A program made the translations under genes and the position numbers. From a virus, in the IMG/VR virus record IMGVR_UViG_3300035698_021020, positions 1 to 64,000 of that record: DNA of 64,000 nucleotides; one strand, given 5' to 3'. Below the pieces are notes generated by a model. That model was not told where the DNA came from and did not search any database. It saw only the letters and a list, made by a program, of their open reading frames with translations. Numbering within the stretch: the first letter of the stretch is position 1; every line of letters starts with the position of its first letter. Below, in pieces: positions 16,997 to 58,928 of the stretch.

Positions 16997-18580
16997 ATGG
17001 CAGAAATAACTCTAGACTTCAAACCGAGGAAACAACAAAAGGAAATGCTTGCCTTTACTACTTCTGCCATAAATAGTGGTAAGAAGTTTATTATGATTGA
17101 TGCACCAACGGGTACAGGCAAATCGTTCTTTGCGATTATGCTTTCTCATTGGTATACTAAGACTTATAATAAGAAAGCTAAGATTGATATCCTGACCAAC
17201 ACCAAGCTCCTTCAGGACCAATATGTTGATGATTTCGAATTTGCTGCTAATCTAAAAGGAAACAATAATTATTACTGTGGGAAACACAAAATAAATTGTG
17301 GAGAAGCTAAATTGATTAATAGAGCAAATAATGACCATTGTAAAATATGTCCTCATAGAATTGCTCAAAATAAATTCACAAGAAGTCCATTAAGCCTTAC
17401 TAATTTCCATCTAGCTACGTCATATATGATGTATCTTCCACAGTTTTTTCTTGAACGAGATGCTCGACTTCTAATTATTGATGAAGCAAATATGTTTGAA
17501 GAGACTTTTTGTGACTTCATTGCTTCTACTTTGTCAGAAAGGAGTTTAAAATTAATGGATATTTGGGAACCATTTATGGAAAGTGATATATCTCGATTAG
17601 ATACTCTTCCAGCTATTTCTGGATATATTGCAGATGTAGTTATTCCATTGATTGATAATAAGATTGAAGAACACTTATCTGGAGTTAAGAATCTCAGAGG
17701 TAAAAAGAAATTAGATGCGGCTAAGAAAGCAGACTTCATAGATAAAATCAAATGTAAATATGACAGATTTGTAGGCGATTCTGAGAATTACAAAACAAAT
17801 TGGATATTTGAAAAAGATCTAGATAATCACGGTAAAACTAGAATTACGGTTGAACCTATATGGGGAAACATTTATCTAAAAGAAAACTTTTGGGATAAAT
17901 ACGATCATATCGTCCTAATGTCGGGTACCATATTAGACCAGGAGTTATTCTCGTTTATTATGGGAATACCAAATGAAGAATCTACATATCTATCTTTGGA
18001 TTGTCCATTTGATGCTGAGAAGCGACCAGTGATCTACGCTAAATTTGGTAAAATGTCATATTATGATAAAGCCGAAACTTTTAAAATAGCTGCACCAGTA
18101 ATCGCAAATATTTTAAAAAAGAATGCAAAGCACAAAGGAATAATTCATACATCTACTTATCAGTTCAGTAAGTGGATACAGGAACAAGTCAAAGACAAGC
18201 GACTTCTATTTCATACTACTGCTACTAGAGAAAAAACACTTAAGAAACATATCGTAAGTCAAAAGGAGACAGTTATAGTTTCTCCATCCATGATAAATGG
18301 AATTGACCTTAAAGATGAATTATCTAGATTTCAGATAATTTTAAAAGTACCTTTTCCTAATCTTATGAGTAAGAGAATAAAGAGGAGACTTGAAACTAAA
18401 CCTGAATGGTATAATTGGAAAGCTCTTGCTGATTTACTTCAAGCATATGGCAGATCAATTAGAAATAGTACAGATTGGGCAGAAACATATATTTTGGATT
18501 CATGCTTTGATCAAATACGGTATAATGCACCACAATATTTCAAAGACGCATTAAAGATCAAAACACTACCTAAGAAATGA
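16997..18580 (+). CDS. XPD/DinG-type Fe-S DNA helicase
   Basis: Superfamily 2 helicase. Walker A APTGTGKS at 36-43; four cysteines C94, C101, C115 and C118 (YYCGKHKINCGEA, DHCKICPH) placed between motifs I and II like the iron-sulfur cluster of XPD and DinG; DEAN box (LIIDEANMFEE); motif III region LMSGTILD; and motif VI QAYGRSIRN. 527 residues. Predicted 5'-3' helicase clearing structures or R-loops. It overlaps the topoisomerase gene by four bases, and has no counterpart in T4 itself. DinG versus Rad3 subtype cannot be settled by eye. Confidence 0.88.
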   Translation: MAEITLDFKPRKQQKEMLAFTTSAINSGKKFIMIDAPTGTGKSFFAIMLSHWYTKTYNKKAKIDILTNTKLLQDQYVDDFEFAANLKGNNNYYCGKHKINCGEAKLINRANNDHCKICPHRIAQNKFTRSPLSLTNFHLATSYMMYLPQFFLERDARLLIIDEANMFEETFCDFIASTLSERSLKLMDIWEPFMESDISRLDTLPAISGYIADVVIPLIDNKIEEHLSGVKNLRGKKKLDAAKKADFIDKIKCKYDRFVGDSENYKTNWIFEKDLDNHGKTRITVEPIWGNIYLKENFWDKYDHIVLMSGTILDQELFSFIMGIPNEESTYLSLDCPFDAEKRPVIYAKFGKMSYYDKAETFKIAAPVIANILKKNAKHKGIIHTSTYQFSKWIQEQVKDKRLLFHTTATREKTLKKHIVSQKETVIVSPSMINGIDLKDELSRFQIILKVPFPNLMSKRIKRRLETKPEWYNWKALADLLQAYGRSIRNSTDWAETYILDSCFDQIRYNAPQYFKDALKIKTLPKK

Positions 18581-20509: not shown

Positions 20510-21046
20510 ATGGAGAATAGTAAAACAATAACTGATTTCCTAGACAAGGAATATCGAGACTATGCAGTTTATGTTCTTGAGGAACGAGCTATTCCATCTG
20601 TAATTGATGGATTTAAGCCAACTCAAAGAAAAATCATTTATATTGCAGATAAAGTCTGGAAGAATGGAAAAGAGAAGCCTTTGAAGGTATTCCAACTTGC
20701 AGGTAGAGTTGCAGCAGATGCTAAGTACCATCATGGCGACTGTCTTGATCCAGATACTGAGATATTATTAAGTGACGGTTCATATATCACAATATGTGAA
20801 TGGTTTGAAAAATATCGAGATACTAAACTTAAAGTTTTAGCATTTGATGAATCTACTGATAAATTTGTAGAAGCAATCGGTCATTCTCCTAGGATAGGTC
20901 AAGTTACTGATCTTGAGTATGAAATTGAGATGGAAGACGGTAGCATATTCAAATGCACAAACAATCATCCGTTCTTAACTCAGCGTGGATGGATTAAAGC
21001 TAAAGATTTAGAGGAAGACGACGACATAATAAATTTAAAATCATAA
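20510..21046 (+). CDS. 52: Topoisomerase medium subunit gp52, N-part fused to N-half of a split intein
   Basis: Residues 1-77 are the gp52 N-terminus (EERAIPSVIDGFKPTQRKI, then AAKYHHGD). The next residue, Cys78 (codon 20741-20743), starts a 101-residue intein N-fragment: block A CLDPDTEILLSDG and block B CTNNHPFLTQRGW (TxxH). The reading frame then stops. It should trans-splice with the C-intein at 22031 to restore YHHGD-SSLNGAI, a gp52 active-region sequence. Expected spliced length 451 residues, like T4 gp52 (442). The insertion sits next to the conserved YHHG motif, a typical intein site. Confidence 0.92.
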   Translation: MENSKTITDFLDKEYRDYAVYVLEERAIPSVIDGFKPTQRKIIYIADKVWKNGKEKPLKVFQLAGRVAADAKYHHGDCLDPDTEILLSDGSYITICEWFEKYRDTKLKVLAFDESTDKFVEAIGHSPRIGQVTDLEYEIEMEDGSIFKCTNNHPFLTQRGWIKAKDLEEDDDIINLKS

Positions 21047-21049
21047 TCC

Positions 21050-21063
21050 ATCACCTTGGTGAT
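21050..21063. repeat. Short inverted repeat after the N-intein stop
   Basis: ATCACC-TT-GGTGAT, directly between the N-intein stop and the endonuclease gene, followed by ATATTT. It could be a weak terminator or a structure isolating the endonuclease message; the stem is short and evidence is weak. Confidence 0.3.
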
Positions 21064-21072
21064 ATTTAGCCT

Positions 21073-21081
21073 AATAAATAA
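21073..21081 (+). promoter_or_regulatory. Late-like promoter box before the homing endonuclease
   Basis: AATAAATAA followed by AATAAAAG, 18 bases before the endonuclease start. It matches the window's late box except for the first base. T4 homing endonuclease genes often carry their own late promoters. Confidence 0.45.
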
Positions 21082-21098
21082 AATAAAAGCTAGTCACT

Positions 21099-22034
21099 AT
21101 GGAATTAAAATGCGATAAATGCAACATAATGTATAATAATAGCCCATATCTAAATACTAATAGAATTAATAATGATCCTATTAGATTTCTACATACATGT
21201 AAGGAATGTAGAAAAATTAAGAAATGTGGAAACTGCAATAATGAATTTAAACATTATCAGAATCAAACATGTTCTAAGAAATGTGCAGCTATTCTAAAGG
21301 AGAAAACATATATGTTAACACAGGGAGCTCCACATAATTTTTCTAAGAATTCGAAATCTAAAATTAGAATACAATTAGAATTACTAGAAAATGAAGGAAT
21401 ATCTAATGTTTTTCAAAGGGATACAGTAAAGGCTGCAATTAAAGCCACTATGATGACAAGATATGGTGTAGACAATATATCGAAATCTGAAGATATTAAA
21501 ATTAAAAAGAAAGAAACTCTTCGTCAAACGTTAATTGATAATCCTGATCTATTTAAGAACAAATGGTGGGAGAATCATAATAGATTTATAAATGACATAG
21601 GATATGATCCAAGATTGAGTATATTTGGAAAAGCGTCGATTGAATCAATGCTAGTATTTAATCCAATATCTAAATTATGCACATCACTTGGAATACTAGA
21701 ATCTGATATATATGTAGGACATGATACTAAATCTGAATATTTTATTAATATTGGTACTAAAACATATTTCTATGATTTCTGTATTAGATCTAAGAATATA
21801 ATAATCGAATATCATGGTGTCGGATTTCATGCAAATCCTACGTGGGAATTGACTAAACTAAATAAATGGAGATCTGCATTTACAAATGAGACCTCAAGTG
21901 AGAATATTAGAAAGACTAAAATAAAAAATAATGCAGCTATTAATAAAGGATTCAAGATTCTTGAAATATGGAGTGATTCCAATATAGATGACAATATTAA
22001 TCTGTGTAAAGCATTTATAAACGCTAACATATGA
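21099..22034 (+). CDS. Vsr-like homing endonuclease inside a fractured gene
   Basis: 311-residue free-standing endonuclease lying between the two intein halves of gp52. N-terminal zinc-finger-like Cys pairs: CDKC, CKEC, CGNC and CSKKC in the first 75 residues. A C-terminal nuclease core TKTYFYDFCIRSKNIIIEYHG...FHANP has the D-F ... E-Y-H-G ... H-x-N-P pattern of the very-short-patch-repair (Vsr, EDxHD) type homing endonucleases reported in fractured split-intein genes. Expected to cut intein-less gp52 alleles and spread the whole insertion. Its last four bases (ATGA) overlap the start of the C-intein gene. Confidence 0.8.
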   Translation: MELKCDKCNIMYNNSPYLNTNRINNDPIRFLHTCKECRKIKKCGNCNNEFKHYQNQTCSKKCAAILKEKTYMLTQGAPHNFSKNSKSKIRIQLELLENEGISNVFQRDTVKAAIKATMMTRYGVDNISKSEDIKIKKKETLRQTLIDNPDLFKNKWWENHNRFINDIGYDPRLSIFGKASIESMLVFNPISKLCTSLGILESDIYVGHDTKSEYFINIGTKTYFYDFCIRSKNIIIEYHGVGFHANPTWELTKLNKWRSAFTNETSSENIRKTKIKNNAAINKGFKILEIWSDSNIDDNINLCKAFINANI

Positions 22035-23275
22035 AAATAAAATCTATTAAAATAAACAATCTAGAATCTCCTAAGAAATTCTATGATATAACCGTAGATA
22101 AGCATCACAATTTTGTAATTGGACGCAAATCTAAAATAGTGACACATAATTCATCATTGAATGGAGCTATTATAACCATGGCTCAGTCATTTAAGAACTC
22201 TATGCCTGTCCTTCAATCAATTGGACAATATGGATCATTACGATCTCCAGAAGCAGGAGCCCCAAGATATGTATCTACTAAACTTCATGAGAACTTCAGA
22301 CAGATCTACATGGATTTTGAATTGCTTACTCCAACTTATGATGAAGGCGATGAGATAGAACCAGAATATTTTCTTCCTATTATTCCAACTGTGTTACTGA
22401 ATGGGAGTTCAGGAATAGCGGTAGGGTTCGCAACTAATATCTTAAATAGAAATCCAATAGTTTTAATTGACTGTTGCCTAAAGGAATTGACTGGAAAGAG
22501 ATTTAATGAGCCTGTTCCATGGTACAATGGATACAATGGAGTTGTGCATAAAGATACAGCATCTGGCTCATGGATATTTAGCGGAAGATGGAATGCTAAA
22601 AATACAACTACTGTTGATATATCTGAACTTCCACCATCTATGACATATGAGAAGTATGACACATATCTTTCAAACAAAGAAGATCTTAGAGCTATTACGA
22701 GTTATGCGAACAGAGGTAAAGGTTCTATTGATTATGAAGTGAAGTTCTCTAGAAGCGAATTAGCTAGATTAACGACAAGTGATAGACTAACTCGTTTATT
22801 GAAGATGGAAGAAAAACAATCTGAGAATCTAACTGTCTTAGATGAGAATAAGAAACTGAAAATCTTCAAAAGCGCATCAGAGATAATCAAATACTTTGTT
22901 GCCTTTAGATTGAAATATTATGATAAGCGAAAAATTCATTTAATTGAGAAACTCAATAGAGAATTATTGATGCTTACAAATAGAGCTAGATTCATTAAAG
23001 ACATTATCGATAGGAAACTGAAAATCAATAATGTTCCTAAGCGAACTATAGTTCTTTATTTGGAAACCGCAGATTATGATGAAGTAGATAGATCATATAA
23101 CTATTTGCTTTATATGCCAATTCACTCACTAACTAAGGAAAGATATGAAGAGATCTTATCTGAAGTAGGAGATAAGAAGGTAGAATTAGTAGCAACAAAA
23201 AAGCTGAAACCTGCTACGATGTATGAAACAGATCTTAAAGATCTCAGATCAGCACTAATTAAGAAATACAAATGA
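22031..23275 (+). CDS. 52: C-half of split intein fused to gp52 C-part
   Basis: Starts with a 40-residue C-intein: MKIKSIKINNLESPKKFYDI, then a block F segment and a block G end IVTHN, followed by Ser as the +1 extein residue (codon 22151-22153). The remaining 374 residues are gp52: SSLNGAIITMAQSFKNSM, YGSLRSPEAGAPRYVSTKL with the probable catalytic Tyr in RYVSTK, LNGSSGIAVGFATNI and a C-terminal coiled-coil part. Both Cys1 and the HN-Ser junction are intact, so splicing should work. It overlaps guaB-like gene by four bases. Confidence 0.92.
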   Translation: MKIKSIKINNLESPKKFYDITVDKHHNFVIGRKSKIVTHNSSLNGAIITMAQSFKNSMPVLQSIGQYGSLRSPEAGAPRYVSTKLHENFRQIYMDFELLTPTYDEGDEIEPEYFLPIIPTVLLNGSSGIAVGFATNILNRNPIVLIDCCLKELTGKRFNEPVPWYNGYNGVVHKDTASGSWIFSGRWNAKNTTTVDISELPPSMTYEKYDTYLSNKEDLRAITSYANRGKGSIDYEVKFSRSELARLTTSDRLTRLLKMEEKQSENLTVLDENKKLKIFKSASEIIKYFVAFRLKYYDKRKIHLIEKLNRELLMLTNRARFIKDIIDRKLKINNVPKRTIVLYLETADYDEVDRSYNYLLYMPIHSLTKERYEEILSEVGDKKVELVATKKLKPATMYETDLKDLRSALIKKYK

Positions 23276-56101: not shown

Positions 56102-57124
56102 ATGCTTAGGTTTAAAATATCTGAGGACAAGAAAACCGTTAAGCTTGTTCATTTCGATCTGAATTCTGAACGGAGCCACCTAGTTTCTTACTTCAAAAAG
56201 AAATCAAAGAAAGCTGACTTTAATGTGTTGGTTGAACGTGGCATATGGGATGGAATGGATTCATTCTTTAAAGACAACGAGATAAAAATAGGTCTATGGA
56301 AAGAGATCTATAATTTCGCTGACCAATACGGTTATGAAACTGAAATTGAAGGAATAGAGAAGCATCTAAATTTATCATTCACTAAGGAGAAGTATGACAA
56401 GTATGTTACTGATTTACTTGATGGAGTTACTGACGAATTTGGAGAGCCTCTAATTCCAAGAAATTATCAAGCTGAGTCTGCATATAGAGCAATAAAGTAT
56501 AAATTCTGTACTCAAGAACTAGCAACTGCTGCTGGTAAGACCTTAATCTTCTACATATTCAATTCATTCCTTAGAGACGCTGGCAAAATTAACAAAAAGT
56601 CAAAGGCTTTGTTAATCGTTCCAAAGGCTGGATTAGTAAACCAGACAGCACTTGCATTTAACAGATTTACAAAGAAAGGGAGAGATCCACTTAAGCTTTG
56701 CCTAATTGGTGGAAAGAATAAATTCGACCAGAAGATATTTGATGAATCTGAAATGATTATAGCCACTTATCAAAGCCTAAATCATTGGCCAGAGGAGAGG
56801 TTCAAGTCAATTTATTGTGTAGATGTTGATGAATGCTTGCATCCAAGCACTTTAATAACAATGTCGGATTATACTACTAAGTCTATCTCTAATATTAATA
56901 TTGGAGATTCCATAATAACAAAGAATGATATGACTGGAGAACTAGAAGTCAGTGAAGTAGATAAAATACATCATAATTTATCTAGTGAAGAAAATATGTT
57001 TGACTTGGAGTTAGAGGATGGGACTAATATATTACTTACTGGTAATCATAGAATTAAATTAGTATCTGGTGAATATATTAGAGTTGATGAATTAACTGGA
57101 GAAGAAGATATTATGTCCCTCTAA
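56102..57124 (+). CDS. uvsW: UvsW helicase N-part fused to N-half of a second split intein
   Basis: Residues 1-244 are UvsW: a small N-terminal domain, then the helicase core with RNYQAESAYRAIKYKF (Q-like motif), LATAAGKTLIFYIF (motif I), ALLIVPKAGLVNQTA (motif Ia) and MIIATYQSLNHW. The protein is cut at motif II, YCVDVDE, where Cys245 (codon 56834-56836) starts a 96-residue intein N-fragment: CLHPSTLITMSDYTTK (block A) and LLTGNHRIKLVSGEY (block B, TxxH). UvsW drives branch migration and R-loop removal. Splicing with the 57966 product restores DVDE-CHKSRG. Confidence 0.9.
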   Translation: MLRFKISEDKKTVKLVHFDLNSERSHLVSYFKKKSKKADFNVLVERGIWDGMDSFFKDNEIKIGLWKEIYNFADQYGYETEIEGIEKHLNLSFTKEKYDKYVTDLLDGVTDEFGEPLIPRNYQAESAYRAIKYKFCTQELATAAGKTLIFYIFNSFLRDAGKINKKSKALLIVPKAGLVNQTALAFNRFTKKGRDPLKLCLIGGKNKFDQKIFDESEMIIATYQSLNHWPEERFKSIYCVDVDECLHPSTLITMSDYTTKSISNINIGDSIITKNDMTGELEVSEVDKIHHNLSSEENMFDLELEDGTNILLTGNHRIKLVSGEYIRVDELTGEEDIMSL

Positions 57125-57141
57125 TTTTATGAAGTTCTTTA

Positions 57142-57150
57142 TATAAATAA
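57142..57150 (+). promoter_or_regulatory. Late promoter box TATAAATAA before the second endonuclease
   Basis: Exact T4 late octamer TATAAATA, 12 bases before the endonuclease ATG and directly after the N-intein stop. The cleanest T4-consensus late box in the window. Confidence 0.6.
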
Positions 57151-57161
57151 AAGTAAAGGAA

Positions 57162-57976
57162 ATGACTAAACTCGAATTATATAACCATATAAATACAAAT
57201 AAGTCTAAATTTATTGCTATTTCCGGTAAAAGTATTGATGATAATTTAAAAATTGGTTAGAACAAGAGAAAATATCAATTCCAATACCTAAAATAACAGT
57301 AAATGCAGTATATGACTATCTTTTAAATAATAAAGGAAAATATTGTGCACTTTGTCGTTCTGAAAATAGATTCAAATCTTTAAATTTAGGATATACTTTA
57401 TTTTGTTCAAAGTCGTGTCTTCATAAATGGCGATCTATTAATATGTCTGGTAAAAACAATAATGTCTTTAAAATGTCAAATGAAGCCAAATTAATCAGTA
57501 GAAAAAGGCAATCTGATACTATGAAACAACTTATATTAGATGGTAAGTTTACACCAACTGTAACAAATAGCTGGTGTAAATCTAGAATTAAAGTCAATAT
57601 TTCTAGAAATAGTGAAGATATTATAATATCATGTCGATCATCTTGGGACGCATATTTTCAAATACATAATCCTACTTTTTTATATGAGAATGTTAGAATA
57701 CCATATGAATATTGTGGAAAATTCAAAGTTTATTTAGTAGATTTTGTTGATACTTCTAATAGAAAACTATATGAGATTAAACCAAGTGGATTAATTGAGT
57801 CTAAAATGAATAGACTTAAAGAACATGCTGCTATTTCTTGGGCTAAATCAAATAATTATACCTTTGAATTTATTACTCAAAAATGGTTTAAGAAATACTT
57901 TGATATATCGAAAATAAAAACGCAGTCTGAATATACTAAAATTAAAAGATTACTATCCCAATTTCATGAAAATTAA
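57162..57976 (+). pseudogene. PD-(D/E)XK-like homing endonuclease, frameshifted
   Basis: ATG 57162 reads 32 codons to TAG at 57258-57260. The -1 frame continues without a stop to 57976 and supplies the rest of the protein: WLEQEKISIPIPK, zinc-finger cysteines CALC and FCSKSC, and a nuclease core YCGKFKVYLVDFVDTSNRKL followed by YEIKP (D ... E-x-K). Joining the frames gives about 271 residues. The shift falls at T-TTA-AAA (57245-57251), a canonical -1 slippery heptamer, so it is a one-base loss, programmed -1 frameshifting or a homopolymer sequencing error. An ATG at 57443 exists but would drop the zinc finger. Overlaps the C-intein gene by 11 bases. Confidence 0.75.
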
Positions 57977-58928
57977 AAAAATAACAAAATTAGGTAGGGC
58001 AGGGGAAGTTTTTAACTTGCGTATTAAAACACAATCTGATGCAAATCATAATTATTTTGCAAATGGAATAAATGTAGCAAATTGTCATAAAAGTAGAGGA
58101 AATGTAATCAAGAAGGTAATAGAATACTGTATAAACTGGAGATATATGCTTGGTTTATCTGGAACAGTAAAGCTTGATGAAAAATACTCCGATTATTTCA
58201 GAATGCTTGAAACAATTGGTCCATTGGTTCTTACTTTATCTGCGAAGCACCTAATTGACAATCAGTATTCTCCAAATATCAAAATTAAGCAAATTAAGCT
58301 GGCTTATGATAAAGATAGTGAATATTTGAAGAAATATTGGGACTTGAAGGCAAATGGGGCTTCCATGTACTCAAATAAGCGAGATTTTGGAGGAGATATG
58401 TTCGAATTGGAAAAACAATTCCTTTATAATAATCCAGAACGACTATCTTTCATAAATGAACTAGTTAGGCGTCTAAATAAGAACACATTAGTCTTATTTT
58501 CGAATATCAAAGATGAATATGGCAAAAAGATATATGAAGAGATTTCAAAATGGAATAAGCATACCTTTTATATCGATGGTGAAGTAGATAATGATCTTCG
58601 TGAACAATATAAGGCAATAATGGAAGCAGAAGACAATGTTGTCATCGTTGCTTCATTTGGGACGTTCTCAACCGGTATTGATATTAAGAAAGTGTATCAC
58701 ATTATCTTTGCTGAATCAACCAAAGCTGAAATAACCATTCGCCAATCGATAGGTAGAGGAATGAGAGCGTTTAAGAATAAATTAGCAACATATATTTGGG
58801 ACATCGTCGATATGCTTGATGGATATATGGTCAAGCACTCAAAGGCTCGACTTAAGATCTATAAAGAGCAGAAATTTGAAGTATCTAATATGGATGTAGA
58901 TCTAACGAAGTTCAATAAGCCTAATTGA
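57966..58928 (+). CDS. uvsW: C-half of second split intein fused to UvsW C-part
   Basis: Residues 1-39 are a C-intein (MKIKKITKLGRAGEVFNLRI, block F DANHNYFANG), ending NVAN before Cys as +1 residue (codon 58083-58085). The penultimate residue is Ala, not the usual His. The other 281 residues are the UvsW C-half: CHKSRGNVIKKVIEYCINWR, MLGLSGTVK (motif III), VLFSNIKDEYGKKIY (motif IV), VVIVASFGTFSTGIDIKKV (motif V) and IRQSIGRGMRAFKNK (motif VI). Spliced length would be 525 residues, like T4 UvsW (503). Confidence 0.9.
   Translation: MKIKKITKLGRAGEVFNLRIKTQSDANHNYFANGINVANCHKSRGNVIKKVIEYCINWRYMLGLSGTVKLDEKYSDYFRMLETIGPLVLTLSAKHLIDNQYSPNIKIKQIKLAYDKDSEYLKKYWDLKANGASMYSNKRDFGGDMFELEKQFLYNNPERLSFINELVRRLNKNTLVLFSNIKDEYGKKIYEEISKWNKHTFYIDGEVDNDLREQYKAIMEAEDNVVIVASFGTFSTGIDIKKVYHIIFAESTKAEITIRQSIGRGMRAFKNKLATYIWDIVDMLDGYMVKHSKARLKIYKEQKFEVSNMDVDLTKFNKPN

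What the first reader, a model, noticed from the sequence alone, without database searches (positions are those of the whole stretch)
56102..58928. Second fractured gene: UvsW helicase interrupted in its DExH box
The N-part ends exactly at VDVDE and the C-extein resumes with CHKSRG, so the split intein sits inside motif II of the helicase, while an endonuclease gene fills the space between. Two independent fractured genes in one 64 kb segment is unusual and implies active homing in this lineage.
Basis: partly seen in the sequence, partly recalled or inferred. Interest (0 to 1): 0.93.

Follow-up and report, generated by a model that had tools for sequence, protein, structure and literature searches.

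The report
Split intein breaking phage UvsW helicase
A phage repair-helicase gene is broken in two inside its ATP-splitting motif by a split intein (a protein that stitches its flanks together and cuts itself out) plus a DNA-cutting enzyme gene, and the same element sits at the same site in many unrelated phages, with tracks of recent jumping in one group.

Summary
Confirmed. Window 56102-57124 encodes the UvsW N-half plus a 96-aa IntN; 57966-58928 encodes a 39-aa IntC plus the C-half. The cut is exactly DE|CH (helicase motif II). In 77-78 non-redundant phage loci the site, Cys1, block-B TxNH, terminal Asn and +1 Cys are essentially invariant while other intein columns vary, so trans-splicing is very probably under selection. 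A contiguous 139-aa relative folds as an intein. Between the halves lies a TnsA-like PD-(D/E)xK homing endonuclease (HEN), not the EDxHD/Vsr type I recall for published fractured genes. Its stop codon overlaps the IntC start in 67 of 75 loci, even where the HEN is otherwise deleted, which suggests translational coupling. Lak-B phages are polymorphic for the insert (4 occupied, 5 empty) with a co-conversion tract of 21 nt left and 87 nt right: a footprint of recent homing. In the window itself the HEN frame is broken, so active homing is not shown here. The same HEN family accompanies inteins at Walker-B DE|C in TerL, PhoH, clamp-loader and XPD/DinG-like genes. Known kind, new site and nuclease, wide spread. 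Dassa 2009 could not be read, so priority is unchecked.

The parts
56102..56833 (+). UvsW N-extein, 244 aa (DEAD/ResIII domain), ends ..VDVDE
56834..57124 (+). IntN, 96 aa, Cys1, block B TGNH, net charge -13, with stop codon
57162..57260 (+). first 32 codons of the HEN in one frame, then stop (frame broken at an A-run)
57245..57976 (+). rest of the HEN in another frame: Cys pairs (Zn-ribbon-like), PD-(D/E)xK domain RSSWD..VDF..YEIKP; internal ATG at 57443
57966..57976 (+). 11-nt overlap of HEN stop and IntC start, probable translational coupling
57966..58082 (+). IntC, 39 aa, ends ..NGINVAN (penultimate Ala, terminal Asn), net charge +5
58083..58928 (+). UvsW C-extein, 281 aa, starts +1 Cys (CHKSRG), Helicase_C domain

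Best explanation
The uvsW gene is fractured by a naturally split class-1 type intein placed exactly between Glu and Cys of the motif II DECH. The two precursors bind through their oppositely charged intein halves and trans-splice: Cys1 N-S shift, transfer to the +1 Cys, Asn cyclisation, restoring a contiguous ..VDVDECHKSRG.. UvsW. The gene between the halves is a homing endonuclease of a TnsA-like PD-(D/E)xK family that once drove the insertion by cutting intein-free uvsW; co-conversion carries flanking DNA, including the obligatory Cys codon. IntC translation is probably coupled to the end of the HEN frame. In this phage the HEN frame is broken, so the element is probably in the degenerating phase of the homing cycle while splicing is retained because UvsW needs it. 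Shown: anatomy, recurrence, conservation, broken frame, Lak-B footprint. Inferred: splicing chemistry, coupling, cleavage activity.
For: Same DE|C..N|C junction in 78 of 78 non-redundant loci, +1/+2 CH in 77. Among 129 well-filled intein columns over 77 loci only 13 are at least 95% conserved, and they include Cys1, T69, N71, H72, N125 and terminal Asn; median top-residue frequency 0.57. IntN profile matches Ssp DnaB intein E 7e-9; AF2 of contiguous L039 intein pLDDT 92.6 with inteins and intein-like domains as top PDB folds, E about 1e-8. IntN net charge -13 and IntC +5 in the window; in all six loci compared IntN is negative and IntC is zero or positive. Contiguous one-ORF versions L039/L040 and L099 at the same site. 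Lak-B: 4 occupied vs 5 empty genomes, 1654-bp insert; 7 differences within 21 nt left and 27 within 87 nt right, against 0 in the next 1379 nt left (B2) and 14 in the next 2613 nt right. The HEN stretch is the lowest-GC part of the record (0.249 vs 0.332; 0 of 1431 windows as low). HEN states intact, frame-broken, remnant and absent all seen. Stop/start overlap 67 of 75, kept in HEN-deleted L008/L037 and L042.
Against: No splicing assay or proteome. Penultimate residue is Ala rather than His (family: Ser 63, Ala 9, Glu 3, Lys 2, His 1). Intein-versus-extein tree conflict (window intein with L008, window extein with L010) is not significant on the intein side, AU p 0.29. No Shine-Dalgarno-like stretch is evident before the IntC ATG. 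A metagenome indel error could mimic the HEN frame break; no near-identical strain was found to check it.
Confidence: 0.9

Rival explanations
1. Genes in pieces: a HEN split uvsW and the two polypeptides assemble without splicing, as reported for Aeromonas NrdA and split gp43.
For: Such cases exist in T4-like phages (PMC2988022). No splicing assay is available here.
Against: Complete intein motifs at both junctions, invariant nucleophiles and Asn over 77-78 divergent loci, and contiguous in-frame intein versions. The break lies inside the ATPase motif, where an unspliced join is unlikely to work.
Confidence: 0.04
2. The window locus is a decaying allele: the intein no longer splices and uvsW is a pseudogene or replaced by another helicase.
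For: HEN frame broken; the record is a fragment, so a second uvsW elsewhere is possible.
Against: Both UvsW halves and both intein halves are fully open, with catalytic residues intact.
Confidence: 0.05
3. Assembly chimera or artefact.
For: Metagenomic contig; low-GC insert.
Against: Same arrangement in cultured and circularised phages (S16, STP4-a, PM2, Lak-B) and about 90 clusters.
Confidence: 0.01

Closest known systems
Fractured genes with split inteins and EDxHD (Vsr-like) HEN (Dassa et al. 2009; cited in held papers, text not held)
   Same: Host gene split in two ORFs on one strand, IntN and IntC at the break, HEN ORF between them, phage setting.
   Different: HEN is TnsA-like PD-(D/E)xK; site is UvsW motif II; IntC start overlaps HEN stop. 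From memory the published cases are gp41, NrdA, NrdJ, IMPDH and others, not UvsW; unchecked.
Ssp/Npu DnaB and gp41-1 / NrdJ-1 inteins
   Same: Hint fold, Cys1, TxxH, terminal Asn, break between blocks B and F.
   Different: Penultimate Ser/Ala (1 His in 78); host UvsW; low sequence identity (about 24-31% in fold matches).
Split uvsW of Salmonella phages S16/STP4-a/CF-SP2/SEA1 and Proteus phage PM2
   Same: Same arrangement, with related IntN, HEN family and IntC.
   Different: Deposited only as helicase pieces plus hypothetical protein; the fragments appear already clustered in PHROGs (phrog_16259, phrog_9690, phrog_15427).
Walker-B (TerL1-e) inteins of mycobacteriophages (PMC5050341) and the GOS-TerL split intein
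   Same: ATPase Walker-B region as insertion niche (for GOS-TerL from memory, not checked).
   Different: TerL, not a helicase; HEN type not compared here.
TnsA endonuclease of Tn7
   Same: Best PDB fold of the HEN, prob 0.99-1.0 but E only 0.03; Pfam TnsA_N hit below cut-off.
   Different: Here fused to Cys-rich and NUMOD3-like parts and found inside split inteins, not a transposon.

Membership tests
Split intein | N-terminal Cys/Ser/Thr, block B TxxH, terminal Asn, +1 Cys/Ser/Thr | tested here: met
   Cys1, T69-N71-H72, Asn135, +1 Cys, invariant or nearly so in 77-78 loci
Split intein | Hint fold | tested here: met
   Contiguous homologue L039: pLDDT 92.6, inteins among the top PDB hits; window IntN about 53% identical to it
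Split intein | Two separately encoded fragments on the two host halves | tested here: met
Split intein | Trans-splicing activity | not testable with these tools
   needs co-expression or proteomics
Fractured gene (Dassa type) | Free-standing HEN ORF between the halves | tested here: met
   HEN present (frame-broken in the window) and intact in most relatives
Fractured gene (Dassa type) | HEN of the EDxHD/Vsr family | tested here: not met
   Motif E..D..ExK with TnsA as best fold; I-Bth0305I only fifth, prob 0.90
UvsW helicase | SF2 N and C domains with UvsW relatives as best matches | tested here: met
Mobile (homing) intein | Empty alleles in close relatives with co-conversion tract | tested here: met
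   Lak-B, for the same element; for the window's own lineage only more distant empty DEVH/DETH relatives
Mobile (homing) intein | Functional HEN in the window | tested here: not met
   full-length reading frame broken; a shorter product from ATG 57443 is possible, activity not tested

The most novel reading that the evidence does not exclude
A TnsA-like HEN lineage is specialised on the Walker-B / motif II sequence 'DE|C' of P-loop ATPases and has carried inteins, canonical and atypically split, into at least five unrelated phage ATPase families (UvsW, XPD/DinG-like helicase, TerL, PhoH, clamp-loader/AAA+). Its reading frame doubles as the translational coupler for IntC, so its 3' end is kept even after the nuclease is lost. 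Alleles with V or T at +1 would be refractory unless co-conversion supplies the Cys codon.
Probability: 0.5. Interest if true: 0.75.

Novelty: new variant of a known kind. Interest (0 to 1): 0.62.

Why it matters
It turns a one-off 'fractured gene' into a large natural family (at least 78 distinct loci) with occupied, empty, nuclease-broken, nuclease-deleted and one-ORF states, which makes the intein homing cycle and the origin of split inteins directly testable, in culturable phages (S16 group) and in a natural polymorphism (Lak-B). It also offers many untested split-intein pairs with Ser/Ala penultimate residues, and a homing endonuclease family that appears tied to ATPase active-site sequences.

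Tried and rejected
Group I intron or other structured RNA at the locus: no Rfam match in the window, nor in the four relatives with a second insert. Programmed -1 frameshift in the HEN at TTTAAAA: the heptamer occurs 54 times in the window against 53 expected, and L010 and L068 read through without it; left as mutation or error. Tree conflict as proof of horizontal transfer: suggestive only. Near-identical strain to check the frame break: none in viral contigs. Cellular copies of the IntN: none found by the pattern scan of genome contigs. Literature: no held paper found that links uvsW to a split intein; Dassa 2009 is not held.

Full report
WHAT IS THERE. Two same-strand ORFs encode the halves of a UvsW-type SF2 helicase: 56102-57124 and 57966-58928. 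The first ends ..VDVDE followed by CLHPSTLITM..; the second starts MKIKKITK.. and runs to NGINVAN, then CHKSRG... Pfam, PHROGs and NCBIfam assign the extein parts to DEAD/ResIII, UvsW_N and Helicase_C, and the junctions to Hint or intein models; NCBI's intein_Cterm passes its cut-off. The intein therefore splits motif II as DE|CH, with the helicase's own Cys as the +1 nucleophile.

THE SAME SITE EVERYWHERE. Profile scans of viral contigs, plus the annotated phage collection, gave 149 loci with an IntN-like match, which collapse to 91 clusters. Of the 78 with both halves readable, all have Cys1, terminal Asn and DE before the break, and 77 have CH after it; the penultimate residue is Ser 63, Ala 9, Glu 3, Lys 2, His 1. 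Six of these 78 lie in a different, XPD/DinG-like helicase. The counts are lower bounds, since the scans return at most 80 loci each. Only 13 of 129 well-filled intein columns are at least 95% conserved, and they include the splicing residues. Cultured examples are Salmonella phages of the S16 group and Proteus phage PM2, deposited as helicase pieces around a hypothetical protein. Versions in one ORF exist (L039/L040, L099), and L113/L195 fuse IntN to the HEN. The L039 intein (139 aa) is predicted at pLDDT 92.6, and inteins and bacterial intein-like domains are its best PDB matches.

THE NUCLEASE. The ORF between the halves is a PD-(D/E)xK protein with conserved Cys pairs and the motif RSSW(E/D)..VDF..YEIKP. 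TnsA gives the best fold match (prob 0.99-1.0, E 0.03) and the EDxHD enzyme I-Bth0305I is weaker; the sequence hit to Pfam TnsA_N is below cut-off. In the window its frame is broken: codons from ATG 57162 end at a stop at 57258, and the homologous continuation is in another frame from 57245; L010 reads through in one frame. Whether this is a mutation or an assembly error could not be settled. L008/L037 and L042 keep only a C-terminal HEN remnant; L044, L058 and L105 show none.

COUPLING. In 67 of 75 loci a long frame ends in a stop codon that overlaps the IntC start, often by 4 or 11 nt (11 in the window). The overlap is kept in HEN-deleted L037 and L042. I infer translational coupling of IntC to the HEN frame; it is not tested.

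HOMING. Lak-B phages B2, B4, B7 and B8 carry a 1654-bp insert, while B1, B3, B5, B6 and B9 are empty. Against the empty allele, B2 differs at 7 sites within 21 nt on the left and at none of the next 1379, and at 27 sites within 87 nt on the right and 14 in the following 2613. This is the co-conversion footprint expected of double-strand-break homing. In the window's own group, all 24 sampled empty alleles (L011-L034) have V or T at +1, so a new insertion there would have to bring the Cys codon by co-conversion; this is inference. The extein tree places the window with L010, L068 and L076, while the intein tree places it with L008; extein data reject the latter (AU p 0.00026) but intein data do not reject the former (p 0.29), so transfer into this lineage is suggested, not shown. 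The HEN stretch has the lowest GC of any 844-bp window in the record.

WIDER PATTERN. The same HEN family accompanies inteins at hydrophobic-DE|C (Walker B) sites in an XPD/DinG-like helicase (L053, L056, L059, L066, L072, L094), TerL (L197, L163, L172, L187, L131, L137), PhoH (L200), clamp-loader-like genes (L180, L158, L167, L186) and an AAA+ gene (L135). The gene names here rest on my reading of the motifs, and on record annotation for TerL and PhoH. Some HENs sit at other sites (L134, L139).

VERDICT. 'Active homing in this lineage' is not shown for this phage. The kind is known (split intein in a fractured gene); the site, the nuclease family, the breadth and the population footprint appear undescribed in the held library, but the founding paper could not be read.

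Noticed in passing
window 20510-23275: First fractured gene: topoisomerase II gp52/GyrA-like..KYHHGD|CLDPDT.. IntN, a different HEN (21099-22034, looks EDxHD/Vsr-like by eye), IntC ..KIVTHN|SSLNG...
   Followed up: partly
window 16997-18580: XPD/DinG-like helicase, intein-free with DEAN at motif II; its relatives in L053, L056 and L072 carry the same intein at DE|CH.
   Followed up: partly
L008 6540-7900, L011 7000-8560, L014 5400-6950, L026 7200-8600: A second break in UvsW at motif V: an HNH-like ORF, a Hint-like tail lacking block A on the N-part, and a conserved 7-nt TGAGNNC between VASY and GTFSTG, readable as a +1 frameshift at TAT TGA G. Unexplained.
   Followed up: partly
L099 upstream of 4000: The N-extein seems to hold another intein at the P-loop (..IVTHN|TFMC..), so two inteins in one helicase.
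   Followed up: no
L197, L199, L200, L180, L135: TnsA-like HEN in fractured TerL, PhoH, clamp-loader-like and AAA+ genes, all at DE|C.
   Followed up: partly
window 61477-64042 (L036 1477-4042): DNA polymerase B ORF whose start aligns near residue 502 of the phage family, with no N-terminal half just upstream; possibly another split gene.
   Followed up: no
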